A stretch of 64,000 nt of DNA, taken from NCBI GenBank assembly GCA_902794125.1, contig CADBFX010000012.1:1-64000 (forward strand). The letters run 5' to 3'. Made by a program: the position numbers and the translations under genes. The first letter of the stretch is position 1; every line of letters begins with the position of its first letter. The stretch is from an uncultured Elusimicrobium sp. Lineage in GTDB: Bacteria > Elusimicrobiota > Elusimicrobia > Elusimicrobiales > Elusimicrobiaceae. Positions 36,065-40,958 of this stretch are shown here, piece by piece. A model generated the notes under the pieces. That model was given only the letters and a program-made list of their open reading frames with translations. It was not told where the DNA came from and did no database searches.

Positions 36065-37174
36065 ATGGACTATAACATTCTGGTTATCAACCCGGGTTCT
36101 ACTTCGGATGATATCGGTTATTACCGAGGCGATAAACCCGTTTTTGAAGTAACTGTGCGTTATTCCCCTGCTGCGTTGGAACCCTACGAAGGCCGTAATG
36201 TCACCGAACAACTACCCTTGCGCCGTAAATTAATCTTAGATTATTTGTTAGATCATAAAGTGCCGCTGGAGGAAATTGATGCGGTAATCGGCCGCGGGGG
36301 GCTTGTTCATCCGCTTCAAGGCGGTGTGTATGCCGTTAATGATTTAATGATAGAAGATTTAACTTCCGGCAAATACGGCAGCCATTCCAGTAATTTGGGC
36401 GGCATTTTGGCGCGCGAAATTGCACAATACGCTAAATGCCCCAGTTTTATTGCTAATCCGGTAGTAATTGACGAAATGCAACCGCTGGCGCGTTATTCCG
36501 GTATGCCGGAAAATCCGCGCATTTCTATTTTTCATGCGCTTAGCCAAAAACGCGTAGCCCGGTTAGTGGCTGAAAATTTAGGTAAACCGTACGAAGAAGT
36601 GAATTGTATTGTGTGTCATGGCGGAGGTGGCGTATCTATCGGGGCGCACCAACGTGGCAAAGTGATTGACGTTACGAACGGTTTTGAAGGGGATGGTCCG
36701 ATGACCCCGCAACGCAGCGGCAGTACGCCTAACGCGGAACTAGTTAAAATGTGTTTTTCGGGCAAATATACCCCGCGTGATATCCATTTAAAATTACGGG
36801 GCCGCGGTGGCCTGGTGGCTTATACGGGCACGTCGGATGTAAAGGAACTGGAAGAATTTATCCGTACCGGTAAAAAGCGGCCGGGGTCGCTGATTTCCTG
36901 TTCTCAAGAAAAAGCTAAAATGGCCGAAGATGCCATGATTTACCAAATGGCACAATATATTGGAGCCATGGCGGTGGTTCTTAAAGGCAATGTAGATTTT
37001 ATTGCACTAACGGGCGGGCTTATGTATAGCAAATACATCCCGCAGGAAATCGGTAAATACGTCGGTTGGATTGCGCCTTTGTATATTTTCCCCGGTAGCG
37101 AAGAAAAAGATGCGCTGCGGGCGGCTGCCAAACGGGCACTGGACAATCCGAAAATTGTGCAACAATATAAGTAA
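36065..37174 (+). CDS. buk: Butyrate kinase family protein
   Basis: Acyl kinase of the acetate/butyrate kinase family, 369 residues; makes ATP from acyl phosphate. Family features: VINPGSTS at the N-terminus, AVIGRGGLVHPLQGGVYAVND, CHGGGGVSIGAHQRGKVIDV, GFEGDGPMTPQRSG, TGTSDVKELE and ALTGGLMYSKY. Oddity: the usual STSTKIA at the phosphate loop reads STSDDIG, losing the conserved Lys. All else is typical. SD AAGGGGG. ptb follows 33 nt downstream, supporting an acyl-CoA to acyl-phosphate to acid route. The acyl group (butyrate, isobutyrate or isovalerate) is not set by sequence. Confidence 0.9.
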   Translation: MDYNILVINPGSTSDDIGYYRGDKPVFEVTVRYSPAALEPYEGRNVTEQLPLRRKLILDYLLDHKVPLEEIDAVIGRGGLVHPLQGGVYAVNDLMIEDLTSGKYGSHSSNLGGILAREIAQYAKCPSFIANPVVIDEMQPLARYSGMPENPRISIFHALSQKRVARLVAENLGKPYEEVNCIVCHGGGGVSIGAHQRGKVIDVTNGFEGDGPMTPQRSGSTPNAELVKMCFSGKYTPRDIHLKLRGRGGLVAYTGTSDVKELEEFIRTGKKRPGSLISCSQEKAKMAEDAMIYQMAQYIGAMAVVLKGNVDFIALTGGLMYSKYIPQEIGKYVGWIAPLYIFPGSEEKDALRAAAKRALDNPKIVQQYK

Positions 37175-37207: not shown

Positions 37208-38029
37208 ATGAAATTCAACAGTTTTGCTGATTTGATTAACCAAGTGAAAGGCAAATCAAACAGAGTTGCCGCTGTGAAAGAAATGGTGGCCCAAATCGGT
37301 TTGCCGGAAGATAAATTTGAATTTATCGATTGTGAAGATGTACCCACTATGTGCAAACTCGCCGTGGATCAAATTCTAGCCGGGAAAGGTGATTTTTTAA
37401 TCAAAGGTTTAGTGGATACCAAGTATTACATGAAAGCCATTTTAAATAAAGAAGCCCACCTCGTGCCGGAAGGGGCGCTACTCTCTCACTTTGTGCTATT
37501 TAGCACGCCCAAATACAAAAAACCGTTTGCCGTTACGGATTCGGCTGTTGTAATCGCACCTACCTTGGAACAAAAAGTAAAAATTATTCAAAATGCCGTA
37601 AACACCATGCACAAACTTGGGCTTGAAAACCCGAAAGTGGCTTGCGTGTGCCCGGTGGAAAAAGTGAACGAAAAAATCCCCAGCACCGTGGAAGCTGCCG
37701 CTTTAGCGCAAATGAACAAAGAAGGCAAAATTACGGGATGCACGGTGGAAGGTCCGTACGATTTGTACATTTCTTTATCGGCCGAAAAAGCCGCTGAAAA
37801 AGGAATCAAAGGAGCTCAAGTGGCCGGGGATGCGGATATTTTGATGCTGCCGGACTTGGATGCGGCCAACCCGCTTTATAAAGCATTGGCTTTCTTTGGC
37901 GATCATATGGAAGCTGCGGCCGTGCTCGTTGGGCCGAAAATTCCGGTCATCTTGCCTTCCCGCGCAGATGACCCGAAAGTAAAACTCAATGCAATTGCAT
38001 TGTGCTCTTTCTTAAAAGATCAAAAATAA
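37208..38029 (+). CDS. ptb: Phosphate butyryltransferase family protein
   Basis: Transfers an acyl group from CoA to phosphate, giving acyl phosphate for Buk; 273 residues. Recognised from the Pta/Ptb fold: an AAVKEMVAQIG start, KGDFLIKGLVDTKYYMKAILNKE, the segment SHFVLFSTPKYKKPFAVTDSAVVIAPTLEQK, VEGPYDLYISLS, and the C-terminal DADILMLPDLDAANPLYKALAFFG. SD AAGGAG. Ends at a terminator 7 nt after the stop, closing the lpd-trmJ-buk-ptb run. Confidence 0.9.
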   Translation: MKFNSFADLINQVKGKSNRVAAVKEMVAQIGLPEDKFEFIDCEDVPTMCKLAVDQILAGKGDFLIKGLVDTKYYMKAILNKEAHLVPEGALLSHFVLFSTPKYKKPFAVTDSAVVIAPTLEQKVKIIQNAVNTMHKLGLENPKVACVCPVEKVNEKIPSTVEAAALAQMNKEGKITGCTVEGPYDLYISLSAEKAAEKGIKGAQVAGDADILMLPDLDAANPLYKALAFFGDHMEAAAVLVGPKIPVILPSRADDPKVKLNAIALCSFLKDQK

Positions 38030-38035
38030 TGATAT

Positions 38036-38060
38036 AGGGGCGGTATTTCCGCCCCTTTTT
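38036..38060 (+). terminator. Terminator after ptb, abutting the next start codon
   Basis: AGGGGCGG pairs with CCGCCCCT around a 5-nt loop, then T5; the next gene's ATG is at 38062. Confidence 0.85.
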
Positions 38061-38061
38061 A

Positions 38062-39342
38062 ATGTACATGAAAGAAAAATTTCTAGCTTTCCTTCAAGCT
38101 CATTACCGCCGATATCACGACGTGCTTTTCTATATGATGACGTTAGCGGTGATTGGTTTTTCGGCCTGGTTTGCCATGCAAATTACGCAGCAAAAAAATC
38201 AGCAAGCACGCGAAAATTTGCATACGCGCGAAATCCCGGTGCATGAATACTCCGTCGGTGAAAAGCCAATTTATGTAGCCTTGCAGGAATCCGGGCTTTC
38301 CAAGCAAGAAGTAGCGTATATTGTTAGTAAATTGTCTTCCGTGGTAGATACCCGCAAATTACAAAAACGGGATACATATTCTATTTCCATAGAAAACGGA
38401 CAATTTGTATTGTTTCTTTTAACGCAAGGGTTTAAGAGGTATTTTGTAGCCAATGTAGATGGCGGTCTGGTGGCCGGCGTGAGTGATGTGGAAATTAAAA
38501 CGCGCATTAAAACGGCGGCCGGAGAAATAAAAGGATCTTTGTTTAATTCTATGTTAGCGCATGGATTAGAAGTGCCGCTTATTTTAGATTTTACGGATGC
38601 TTTTTCGTGGACGATTGATTTTAACACCGATACCCGCAACGGCGATCAATATACTGCATTGTGGGAAGAAAACTTTGCTCCGTCCGGCGAAATTGTCAGC
38701 CAAGATTTATTGGCCGCTTCTTATACGGGTGCGGAAACGAAAAACACCACGTATGCGTTTTATTTTGAAGATGATTTTTATGACGAAACGGGTAAAGTCA
38801 GCAAAAAAATGTTCTTAAAATCGCCGATTAGTTTCCGCGGATACCGTATTTCTTCGCGCTTTTCGTATGGGCGCTTACATCCCATTTTAAAAATCCGCCG
38901 CCCGCATTTGGGGATTGATTACGCGGCTCCGGTAGGTACACCGGTGCAGGCCGTGGCGGATGGAACTGTAAAATTTGCCGGGAAGAAAGGCGGTTTTGGT
39001 AATTTTGTGGAAATTAAGCACGCCAACAATTACACCACCATGTACGGCCACTTAAAAAGTTTTGGTAAAGGCGTTTCCGTGGGGGCTAAAATAAAACAAG
39101 GCCAAACCGTAGGTTATGTGGGAAGCACCGGGCTTTCCACCGGGCCGCACTTGGATTTCCGCATTAAAGAGAAAGAAAAATTTTTAGACTTTTTAAAAAT
39201 GAAAAACCGTAATTCTGCCGTACGGGATATCCCGGCGGAAAAGAAGGCCGAATTTGAAGAATTAAAAGAGTTGTATTTAAAAGAATTAAATGCGGCGCAG
39301 GTTAAAGAGCAATCGGCCGCACAGGAGCAACATGAAGCGTAA
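38062..39342 (+). CDS. M23 peptidase (LytM-type cell-wall endopeptidase)
   Basis: Peptidoglycan endopeptidase, 426 residues. N-terminal basic segment and membrane helix (about 22-42) anchor it; an OapA/LysM-like and beta-rich middle (about 60-260) precedes the M23 domain (about 270-375): HLGIDYAAPVGTPVQAVADG (zinc His and Asp), YGHL, and GPHLDFRI (second His). All zinc ligands are present, so it is probably active. The C-terminus is helical and charged. The first ATG (38062) is 2 nt after a terminator T tract and a second ATG is at 38068; neither has an SD. The next gene's ATG overlaps its end. Confidence 0.88.
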   Translation: MYMKEKFLAFLQAHYRRYHDVLFYMMTLAVIGFSAWFAMQITQQKNQQARENLHTREIPVHEYSVGEKPIYVALQESGLSKQEVAYIVSKLSSVVDTRKLQKRDTYSISIENGQFVLFLLTQGFKRYFVANVDGGLVAGVSDVEIKTRIKTAAGEIKGSLFNSMLAHGLEVPLILDFTDAFSWTIDFNTDTRNGDQYTALWEENFAPSGEIVSQDLLAASYTGAETKNTTYAFYFEDDFYDETGKVSKKMFLKSPISFRGYRISSRFSYGRLHPILKIRRPHLGIDYAAPVGTPVQAVADGTVKFAGKKGGFGNFVEIKHANNYTTMYGHLKSFGKGVSVGAKIKQGQTVGYVGSTGLSTGPHLDFRIKEKEKFLDFLKMKNRNSAVRDIPAEKKAEFEELKELYLKELNAAQVKEQSAAQEQHEA

Positions 39343-39901
39343 AAAAATAGCATTAACGGGGGGGCCGAACAGCGGTAAAACAACGGCTCTTTCCGTGCTG
39401 AAAGAAACGTTCGGCCCGCAAGTGGAACTCGTGCGCGAGGCGGCCACGCTGATTTTTAGCGGCGGATTCCCTCGCCAAGATAATAGTCGCCCACATATTG
39501 AAGCGGCCCAGAAAATCATCTTTTTCGCTACGCAACAAATGGAAAGTTTGGCTGAAAAATCGTCGGATGCACAACTAATCGTGTGTGACCGCGGCACCGT
39601 GGACGCAGCCGTTTATTGGCCGGGGGGCATAGATGACTTTTTTAAACAAATGAATACGACCCTGGAAGAACAATTGGCTCGCTATGATGCTGTTTTGCAT
39701 TTGTCCCCGCCGGAGAACCCGGCTTTTTATCAATCCACGCACGTGCGTACGGAAAGTTTGGAACAGGCTTTTGAAATTGACCGCAAAATTTTACAAATCT
39801 GGGATAAACACCCCAATCGTAAAATTATCGGTGGGACGGAACATTTCTTTGAAAAAGCAGAAGCCATTAAAGATTTTGTAGAAAAAATTATTAAAGGATA
39901 A
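39332..39901 (+). CDS. P-loop NTPase (AAA_28-type), copy 1
   Basis: Small nucleotide-binding protein, 189 residues, from ATG 39332 with SD AGGAG 5 nt upstream, overlapping the M23 stop; the ORF extends upstream but without SD. Walker A is GGPNSGKTTA; then REAATLIFSGGFPR, ICDRGTVDAAVYWP (Walker B-like with Asp/Arg/Gly), and a helix HVRTESLEQAFEID. This is the AAA_28 family, which resembles thymidylate/NadR-type kinases; substrate unknown. A paralogue of more than half identical residues by eye follows 3 nt downstream. Confidence 0.75.
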   Translation: MKRKKIALTGGPNSGKTTALSVLKETFGPQVELVREAATLIFSGGFPRQDNSRPHIEAAQKIIFFATQQMESLAEKSSDAQLIVCDRGTVDAAVYWPGGIDDFFKQMNTTLEEQLARYDAVLHLSPPENPAFYQSTHVRTESLEQAFEIDRKILQIWDKHPNRKIIGGTEHFFEKAEAIKDFVEKIIKG

Positions 39902-39904
39902 TCT

Positions 39905-40468
39905 ATGAAAAAAATCGTTTTAACCGGCGGCCCCAGCGGCGGCAAAACAACGGCTCTTTCTATTTTGAAAGAAACGTTTGGTAATAAAATTGCACTCGTG
40001 CAAGAAGCGGCCACGCTTATTTATAGCGGTGGTTTCCCACGTAAAGATAATAGCCCGGTGCATATTGAGCATGCCCAAAATATTATTTTCTATACGGTGC
40101 ATCAATTGGAAGAATTGGCCCAGCGCACCTCGGACGCGAGTGTGATGGTGTGTGACCGGGGTTCTATTGACGGAGCTGTTTATTGGCCGCACGGGCCGGA
40201 AGATTTCTTTACGGCTATGCATAGCTCTTTAGAAGCGGAACTAGCGCGGTACGACGCGGTAATTCACCTGTCCCCGCCGCCGGAAAAAGATTTTTACCAA
40301 GCCACCAATGTGCGCACGGAGAACTTACAACAAGCCTTTGAAATTGACGATAAAATTTTAAAGATTTGGGAAAAGCACCCCAACCGCTTGGTGGTTCCGC
40401 GCGAAAAACATTATTTTGAAAAAGCGGAAATTATTAAAAATTTTGTGGAACAATTGCTTTCCAAATAA
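39905..40468 (+). CDS. P-loop NTPase (AAA_28-type), copy 2
   Basis: 187 residues, tandem paralogue of the preceding gene with the same features: [56 protein letters not shown]. The gap is 3 nt, pointing to a local duplication kept as two separate proteins. Differences fall mainly in the middle helix and in the last 50 residues; both retain all visible P-loop residues, so both may be active, perhaps as a heterodimer (inference). Function unknown. Confidence 0.75.
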
Positions 40469-40482
40469 GCAGAGGAGTTGGT

Positions 40483-40887
40483 ATGATTTGGAATCCGTTT
40501 AAAAAGAAAGAGGACGCTGCTGCGCCTGCGGCCGCCACAAAACCTGCGGCTAAAAAAGCAGATAAAAAAGAATCCATTGAAGAACGTTTGGAAAAAGAAA
40601 TTGATGCGCTCCCCGGGTTTATTAAAGGCAAATTAAAAGACCCGGCTGTTAAACAACGCTTTATTGATATTGCCAAGCGCATGGAAAAAGACGGGGTGGA
40701 TTTTAAAAGCCCACGTCAAATGAAGAAATGGATGAAAGAGCACGAAGCCGAACTTCGTGCCGAGCAAAACGGCCAGATGCCTAAGGTGGAAACTGTGGTG
40801 CATGACGGCCCGCGCGTGGGCCGTAACGACCCGTGCCCGTGTGGTAGCGGCAAGAAATATAAAAAATGCTGCGGCGCCGATAAATAA
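40483..40887 (+). CDS. SEC-C motif protein
   Basis: Small protein of 134 residues. A Lys/Ala-rich N-terminal 40 residues, a helical middle ([22 protein letters not shown]) and a C-terminal SEC-C zinc motif [19 protein letters not shown] (C-x-C-x8-C-C). The motif occurs at the SecA tail and in many unrelated small proteins, so the motif alone gives no function. SD AGAGGAG. Last gene of the M23/P-loop NTPase run; the terminator follows. Confidence 0.82.
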
Positions 40888-40910: not shown

Positions 40911-40935
40911 GGGCGGGAACAAAATGTTCCCGCCC
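40911..40935. terminator. Bidirectional terminator
   Basis: GGGCGGGAACA / TGTTCCCGCCC with an AAA loop between convergent genes; only short T runs flank it, so strength is moderate. Confidence 0.7.
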
Positions 40936-40958
40936 TGATTTTGATAGTAAAAGTTTAA

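What the first reader, a model, noticed from the sequence alone, without database searches (positions are those of the whole stretch)
39332..40468. Tandem twin AAA_28-type P-loop NTPases between a cell-wall peptidase and a SEC-C protein
Two 187-189-residue paralogues (more than half identical by eye) are separated by 3 nt and share unusual conserved stretches (REAATL, CDRGxxDxAVYWP, VRTExLxQAFEID). Keeping both copies suggests a heteromer or split roles. The M23-NTPase-NTPase-SEC-C order could be a small unrecognised module.
Basis: partly seen in the sequence, partly recalled or inferred. Interest (0 to 1): 0.5.

Follow-up and report, generated by a model that had tools for sequence, protein, structure and literature searches.

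The report
Twin nucleoside-kinase-like genes in Elusimicrobia
Two neighbouring genes for small nucleotide-binding proteins appear to have arisen by one duplication in a genus of gut Elusimicrobia and to have been kept side by side since; they look like small-molecule kinases of unknown substrate, which is tidy but not very surprising.

Summary
N1 (39332-39901, 189 aa) and N2 (39905-40468, 187 aa) are 65% identical AAA_28 P-loop proteins, 3 nt apart, between an M23 peptidase and a SEC-C protein. Of 66 genomes of the genus 58 hold two full copies; 32 matching genomes outside it hold one each. A tree puts one duplication at the base of the genus, with moderate support. 34 conserved positions are invariant in 48 of 48 N1 and N2 proteins; both copies are under purifying selection; N1 is the more derived.

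The order M23-NTPase-SEC-C is conserved in the family, and terminator-like hairpins bracket the four genes. M23 is absent from the 7 loci examined in the next family, where the core is Ptb-NTPase-SEC-C. The N2 model resembles the NadR kinase domain, thymidylate kinase and deoxycytidine kinase; by sequence it resembles the AAA_28 half of AAA_28-CYTH proteins.

Best reading: a nucleoside-kinase-like phosphotransferase duplicated into an ancestral-like and a derived copy, possibly a heteromer. Substrate and heteromer are untested. New member of a known kind.

The parts
38036..38060 (+). terminator-like hairpin between Ptb and M23, separating the unit from Buk-Ptb
   Evidence: a terminator-like hairpin follows Ptb in 34 of 50 loci (genus loci plus window) against 3.3 expected in shuffles
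38062..39342 (+). M23 peptidase with Csd3_N2 domain, first gene of the unit; overlaps the start of N1 by 11 nt
   Evidence: NCBIfam ShyC and MepM models match below their cut-offs
39332..39901 (+). N1: AAA_28 P-loop protein, the more derived copy
39905..40468 (+). N2: AAA_28 P-loop protein, the copy closer to single-copy relatives
40483..40887 (+). small SEC-C motif protein, last gene of the unit
   Evidence: follows the NTPase in 20 of the 20 single-copy loci fetched
40911..40940 (+). terminator-like hairpin after SEC-C
   Evidence: 42 of 48 loci (genus loci plus window) against 3.9 expected in shuffles
36065..37174 (+). butyrate kinase (Buk), conserved upstream neighbour
   Evidence: TIGR02707 434.7 bits against cut-off 289.1
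37208..38029 (+). phosphate butyryltransferase-like protein (Ptb), conserved upstream neighbour
   Evidence: best NCBIfam matches are phosphate butyryltransferase models, below their cut-offs

Best explanation
N1 and N2 are P-loop phosphotransferases of the AAA_28 / nucleoside-kinase fold. They come from one tandem duplication of a gene that sits in a Ptb-NTPase-SEC-C context in two families of the order. Proposed mechanism (inferred): the P-loop (N2 residues 8-15) holds the NTP; E34 after strand 2 acts as base; D84-R85 of the CDRG motif and R137/E139 of the lid loop position the phosphates and a small nucleoside-like acceptor that also meets Q58 and D89. N2 keeps an ancestral-like activity. 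N1, with the same residues, has shifted in substrate range or serves as a partner subunit. Shown here: paralogy, duplication inside this genus's lineage, residue conservation, predicted fold, gene order, terminator-like brackets. Inferred: kinase chemistry, acceptor, heteromer.
For: 65% identity. N1 and N2 clades inside one genus clade. 34 listed positions invariant in 48/48 N1 and 48/48 N2; median dN/dS 0.094 and 0.061. N2 model pLDDT 87.7, pTM 0.84. Fold matches: NadR kinase domain Z 17.9, a second NadR entry 16.2, thymidylate kinase up to 16.1, dCK up to 15.8; Foldseek ranks dCK and thymidylate kinases first. Profile alignments to the genome's own dTMP kinase (163 columns, prob 91, CDRG on CERY) and to a dNK (85 columns, prob 89, CDRG on QDRT). 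N2 is closer than N1 to six single-copy relatives in 48, 36, 48, 48, 47 and 48 of 48 genomes. Differences fixed between the copies lie in the P-loop (N2 S11 / N1 N13), near the EAAT motif (Y40 / F42) and just after CDRG (G90 / A92).
Against: No model that names a substrate reaches its cut-off. The one characterised AAA_28-type protein I found in print, TTD14, is described as GTP-binding and a trafficking regulator, not a kinase (PMC4624897, passages). NadR shares the fold but, by recall, not the DRG motif, and its lead rests on one entry. A profile search of PDB sequences gave nothing better than E 0.2. The roles of single residues are recalled from nucleoside kinases and were not measured on coordinates. 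The gene is not essential to the order: 12 listed genomes of the next family, seven of them at least 94% complete, have no match at E 1e-10.
Confidence: 0.5

Rival explanations
1. The twins are nucleotide-binding switches or regulators, as TTD14 is described, binding GTP or ATP without phosphorylating a small molecule, perhaps in a complex with the SEC-C protein.
For: A wider relative in Miltoncostaea is an AAA_28-CYTH fusion, the domain order of TTD14. TTD14 binds GTP and not ATP, and a Walker A proline mutation abolishes binding (passages); the matching proline P10 is invariant here.
Against: Residues placed like the acceptor side and lid of kinases (E34, Q58, D84-R85, D89, R137, E139) are also invariant; their roles are inferred. 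There is no CYTH domain here.
Confidence: 0.25
2. The duplication is for dosage or is near-redundant: both copies do the same reaction and no split of roles exists.
For: The 34 listed positions are the same in both copies. Short spacing and the hairpin pattern suggest joint expression.
Against: Within a genome the copies are 61-72% identical, with no sign of homogenisation, they carry fixed differences in and near the P-loop and CDRG motifs, and N1 diverges faster.
Confidence: 0.17
3. The gene order is inherited operon baggage without functional linkage.
For: M23 is absent from 7 of 7 loci fetched from the next family. The Photobacterium relative lies among ORFs that by eye are not Ptb, Buk or SEC-C. 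Lpd-TrmJ-Buk-Ptb upstream is conserved in the genus too, so part of this is plain synteny.
Against: SEC-C follows the NTPase in 20 of 20 single-copy loci fetched, down to about 40% NTPase identity. In L099 the longest frames of Ptb, NTPase and SEC-C overlap by 4 nt each. The window's own downstream genes PdxA, SurA and the second PPIase are found beyond SEC-C in 0 of 52 loci with at least 4 kb there; one locus has weak matches to Mfd.
Confidence: 0.3
4. The twins are nicotinamide riboside kinases or another standard salvage kinase.
For: Best fold match is a NadR kinase domain. The dNK family was found in only 1 of 66 genus genomes, so purine deoxynucleoside salvage lacks a standard enzyme.
Against: The PnuC-type transporter family is in only 8 of 66 genus genomes. 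A separate dTMP kinase is present in the window's genome and the TK family is over its cut-off in 61 of 66 genus genomes.
Confidence: 0.15

Closest known systems
AAA_28 (PF13521)
   Same: Both proteins score far above the cut-off over nearly the whole domain
   Different: A broad family; the model names no substrate
NadR ribosylnicotinamide kinase domain
   Same: Best fold match, Z 17.9, 171 residues aligned, rmsd 2.5
   Different: 16% identity; no adenylyltransferase domain and no NadR model listed by NCBIfam; PnuC family in 8 of 66 genus genomes
Thymidylate kinase and deoxynucleoside kinases
   Same: Fold; P-loop and CDRG-type motif align with the genome's own dTMP kinase and with a dNK
   Different: Far below the dTMP kinase cut-off (N1 18.6 against 83.25 bits, N2 not listed); no dNK Pfam match; a canonical dTMP kinase lies elsewhere on the same contig
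TTD14-type AAA_28-CYTH proteins
   Same: Walker A with proline and the hhhhDxG motif described for TTD14 (passages); a bacterial AAA_28-CYTH fusion aligns over 163 columns at 33% identity
   Different: No CYTH domain; stand-alone and duplicated here
Lactobacillus tandem deoxyadenosine/deoxyguanosine kinases (recalled; no call supports it)
   Same: Recalled as adjacent paralogous nucleoside kinase genes whose products form heterodimers
   Different: Another kinase family (dNK); complex formation not tested here

Membership tests
AAA_28 (PF13521) | score above the Pfam gathering cut-off | tested here: met
   90.5 and 92.6 bits against 27
P-loop NTPase | GxxxxGK[TS] Walker A | tested here: met
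   kept in 48/48 N1, 48/48 N2 and 19/19 single-copy relatives (one has S for T15)
NadR | fold of the NadR kinase domain | tested here: met
   VIA Z 17.9 and 16.2 for two NadR entries; thymidylate kinase at 16.1 is tied with the second
NadR | adenylyltransferase domain / NadR family model | tested here: not met
   single domain of 187-189 aa; no NadR model listed by NCBIfam at E up to 0.1
dTMP kinase (TIGR00041) | score above the curated cut-off | tested here: not met
   18.6 bits against 83.25 for N1, not listed for N2
dNK (PF01712) | match to the Pfam dNK model | tested here: not met
   not listed at E up to 0.1
TTD14-type AAA_28-CYTH protein | CYTH domain | tested here: not met
   only AAA_28 over its cut-off; weak AAA_18 and AAA_24
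TTD14-type AAA_28-CYTH protein | proline in Walker A and hhhhDxG motif | tested here: met
heteromeric tandem kinase pair | N1 and N2 form one complex | tested here: inconclusive
   read-through model of N1 and N2 as one chain: pTM 0.72, pLDDT 77.5; a forced 2-residue link and 15 rows 88% or more identical make this weak
nucleoside kinase | phosphotransfer to a nucleoside or nucleotide | not testable with these tools
   needs an enzyme assay

The most novel reading that the evidence does not exclude
N1 and N2 form an obligate heteromeric kinase with a new small-molecule substrate, working with the SEC-C protein in a unit that split off from an ancestral Ptb-NTPase-SEC-C operon and gained a cell-wall endopeptidase.
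Probability: 0.15. Interest if true: 0.5.

Novelty: new member of a known kind. Interest (0 to 1): 0.3.

Why it matters
Bacterial stand-alone AAA_28 proteins have the fold of nucleoside kinases, and two paper searches listed none with an assigned substrate.

Tried and rejected
Missing thymidylate kinase: rejected, a canonical one scores 154.4 bits at C12:75568-76125.

Defence system: PADLOC gave N1 one match (mad8, E 0.016), N2 none, and the SEC-C protein matches mostly through its C-terminal SEC-C region. Phage origin: no match in the phage collection, two viral-contig relatives at 27% identity, weak matches to PHROG thymidylate-kinase and related models (best E 4.4e-07 for N1).

Assembly artefact: rejected, because the pair recurs in 58 of 66 genus genomes with differences fixed between the copies. 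Contigs do break inside the pair in G003, G033, G036 and G046.

Literature: seven searches. Searches listed no paper on a bacterial AAA_28 kinase. The Lactobacillus tandem heterodimer is recalled: one search found no paper with all its terms, and PMC11662666 (one passage) only names a Lactobacillus dAK in an alignment. PMC4624897 was seen as passages. No search was aimed at the gene order itself.

Distribution outside the phylum: only the plasmid, phage and viral collections were searched with a protein or alignment that could reach it; the one genome-contig scan finds close relatives only. Absence elsewhere is not shown.

Rows dropped. One search printed loci L032-L103 only; one search also left out L001-L031, taken as second copies of genomes already held. 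Of 123 NTPase sequences kept there, 6 shorter than 170 aa were left out of the tree. 20 of the 32 single-copy genomes had their locus fetched (13 of 20 in the family, 7 of 12 in the next). In one search L100 was dropped (frame shortened by an in-frame stop), and L094, very divergent, was left out of the N1/N2 difference list but kept in the residue counts. The 34 residue positions tested were chosen because they were invariant or nearly so in the 35-row alignment, whose rows are part of the larger set. For dN/dS only pairs with dS 0.05-1.5 were used (526 and 653 of 1128). The terminator detector also fired in 10 of 50 stretches after M23 against 1.7 expected, and the simple scan of the window found 13 terminator-like sites against 9.3 (sd 3.4) in shuffles.

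Full report
What is there. N1 (39332-39901) and N2 (39905-40468) are intact ORFs on the + strand, 3 nt apart. They are 65% identical over 184 residues and both match Pfam AAA_28 at over 90 bits. Upstream is an M23 peptidase with a Csd3_N2 domain, whose end overlaps the start of N1 by 11 nt. Downstream, 14 nt away, is a 134-aa SEC-C protein. A search of the window's assembly with N2 found only these two places. A canonical dTMP kinase lies on the same contig.

Who has it. Of 66 genomes in the window's genus 58 show two full-length matches. Four (G003, G033, G036, G046) show pieces at contig ends; G036 shows a piece of one copy only. Four genomes of 66-83% completeness show none. In the same family outside the genus 20 of 24 genomes match, each once. 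In the next family of the order 12 genomes match, each once, while 12 listed genomes of that family do not match at E 1e-10, seven of them at least 94% complete. So the gene is patchy there. In the whole phylum 94 of 340 genomes match, all in this order. Named relatives are Elusimicrobium / Elusimicrobiaceae MAGs, several from rumen, rectum or faeces, and one Candidatus Avelusimicrobium excrementipullorum (L072). G067 is a contig of 1,643,562 bases, by recall the genome size of Elusimicrobium minutum.

History. A maximum-likelihood tree of 117 proteins places N1 and N2 as two clades inside one genus clade (support 87/80 for the joint clade, 96/98 for N1, 86/83 for N2; the single-copy group and the pair fall apart cleanly in 88% of 200 bootstrap trees). 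That reads as one duplication at the base of the genus, with moderate support. Within a genome the copies are 61-72% identical; between genomes N2 averages 89% and N1 79%. N2 is closer than N1 to six single-copy relatives in 48, 36, 48, 48, 47 and 48 of 48 genomes.

Both copies look functional. I took 34 positions that were invariant or nearly so in a 35-row alignment and counted them in 48 N1, 48 N2 and 19 single-copy proteins. All 34 are invariant in N1 and N2. In the single-copy set 31 are invariant, and T15, G86 and Y93 each differ in one row, which the alignment shows to be the divergent L094. They include G8-P10, G13-K14, E34, P45-R46, Q58, C83-D84-R85, D89, W94-P95, R137, E139, D148 and H158-P159 (N2 numbering). 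Median dN/dS is 0.094 (N1) and 0.061 (N2). Eight positions differ between the copies with at least 90% conservation in each, among them S11 (N2) / N13 (N1) in the P-loop, Y40 / F42 and G90 / A92. At the last two, 18 of 18 and 16 of 18 single-copy relatives have the N2 residue (L094 left out), which marks N1 as the derived copy. Against this: in G033 (L082) N2 is broken over two frames near a contig start, and the distant relative G110 has an in-frame TAG in its only copy. Assembly error or decay was not settled.

Gene order. 52 genus loci were compared (they overlap in part with the G genomes and are not independent). 46 show Buk-Ptb-M23-N1-N2-SEC-C, and the other 6 are cut by a contig end; 41 of the 46 also show TrmJ in front. 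I fetched 20 of the 32 single-copy loci. In the 13 from the same family the order is Ptb-M23-NTPase-SEC-C, and 9 of them also show Buk. In the 7 from the next family none has M23; 6 have Ptb-NTPase-SEC-C and one only NTPase-SEC-C. In L099 the longest frames of Ptb, NTPase and SEC-C overlap by 4 nt at each junction. So the deeper unit is Ptb-NTPase-SEC-C; whether M23 was gained in this family or lost in the other is not shown, and a gain is my reading. The window's own downstream genes PdxA, SurA and the second PPIase lie beyond SEC-C in 0 of 52 loci that hold at least 4 kb there; one has two weak matches to Mfd. Buk is over the butyrate kinase cut-off; Ptb is closest to phosphate butyryltransferase but below the cut-offs.

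Transcription unit. The two sites with the most G-C pairs in the scanned stretch lie between Ptb and M23 (38036) and after SEC-C (40911), though the total of 13 sites is not beyond shuffles (9.3, sd 3.4). Across genus loci plus the window a terminator-like hairpin follows Ptb in 34 of 50 and SEC-C in 42 of 48, against 3.3 and 3.9 in shuffles. It follows Buk in 0 of 50, N2 in 1 of 52, TrmJ in 3 of 44. After M23, inside the start of N1, it is 10 of 50 against 1.7, so the detector is not fully specific. N1 and N2 are 2-3 nt apart in 22 of 48 pairs, overlap by 4 nt in 14, and are 4 or 8 nt apart in 12. This supports M23-N1-N2-SEC-C as one unit in the genus; no transcript data were available.

What it works like. 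The AlphaFold2 model of N2 is good (pLDDT 87.7, pTM 0.84) except around the lid loop (134-136). Foldseek ranks human dCK and thymidylate kinases first. VIA-align puts a NadR kinase domain first at Z 17.9; a second NadR entry (16.2), thymidylate kinases (up to 16.1) and dCK (up to 15.8) are tied behind it. The profile alignment to the genome's own dTMP kinase matches P-loop to P-loop and CDRG to CERY, and that to a dNK matches P-loop and CDRG over 85 columns. By recall, E34, Q58, the DR pair and the lid arginine sit where nucleoside kinases have their base, base-binding, ERS-type and lid residues; I had no coordinates to measure it. Outside the phylum the two plasmid relatives found are a stand-alone ORF in Photobacterium (37% identity) and the AAA_28 half of an AAA_28-CYTH protein in Miltoncostaea. 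The latter has the domain order of Drosophila TTD14, which binds GTP but not ATP, and in which a Walker A proline is needed for binding (PMC4624897, passages). Small-molecule kinase and nucleotide-binding regulator both stay open; I favour the kinase because residues on the acceptor side and lid are invariant too.

Salvage context. In the genus the dNK family was found in 1 of 66 genomes (0 of 36 of high quality), the TK family is over its cut-off in 61 of 66, and the PnuC-type transporter family is in 8 of 66. A purine deoxynucleoside kinase role would fill a gap, but nothing here shows it. A dedicated nicotinamide riboside kinase is less likely.

Heteromer. A chain of N1 read through into N2 gave pTM 0.72 and pLDDT 77.5. 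The forced link and the 15 similar rows make this weak. The question is open.

Verdict. It is a lineage-specific duplication in a known family, of moderate interest because I found no assigned substrate for its bacterial members.

Noticed in passing
window 37208-38029: The Ptb gene lacks 32 residues after residue 20 that the three relatives aligned with it all have, an in-frame gap of 96 bases at about 37268; a real deletion or an assembly error.
   Followed up: partly
L110:4974-6104: A Miltoncostaea oceani plasmid gene annotated 'AAA family ATPase' is an AAA_28-CYTH fusion, the domain order of Drosophila TTD14.
   Followed up: partly
L109:5878-6531: Photobacterium sp. DA100 plasmid pDA100 holds a stand-alone relative (37% identity) with no listed gene; the collection's table lists only 3 features for that record.
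   Followed up: partly
L082:1-338: N2 of one MAG (RUG11187) is split over two frames near a contig start; assembly error or decay not settled.
   Followed up: no
L100 (from G110:C103): The only NTPase copy of one distant relative carries an in-frame TAG.
   Followed up: no
L113: The only dNK-family gene in 66 genus genomes lies near a contig end of G038; possibly a contaminant contig.
   Followed up: no
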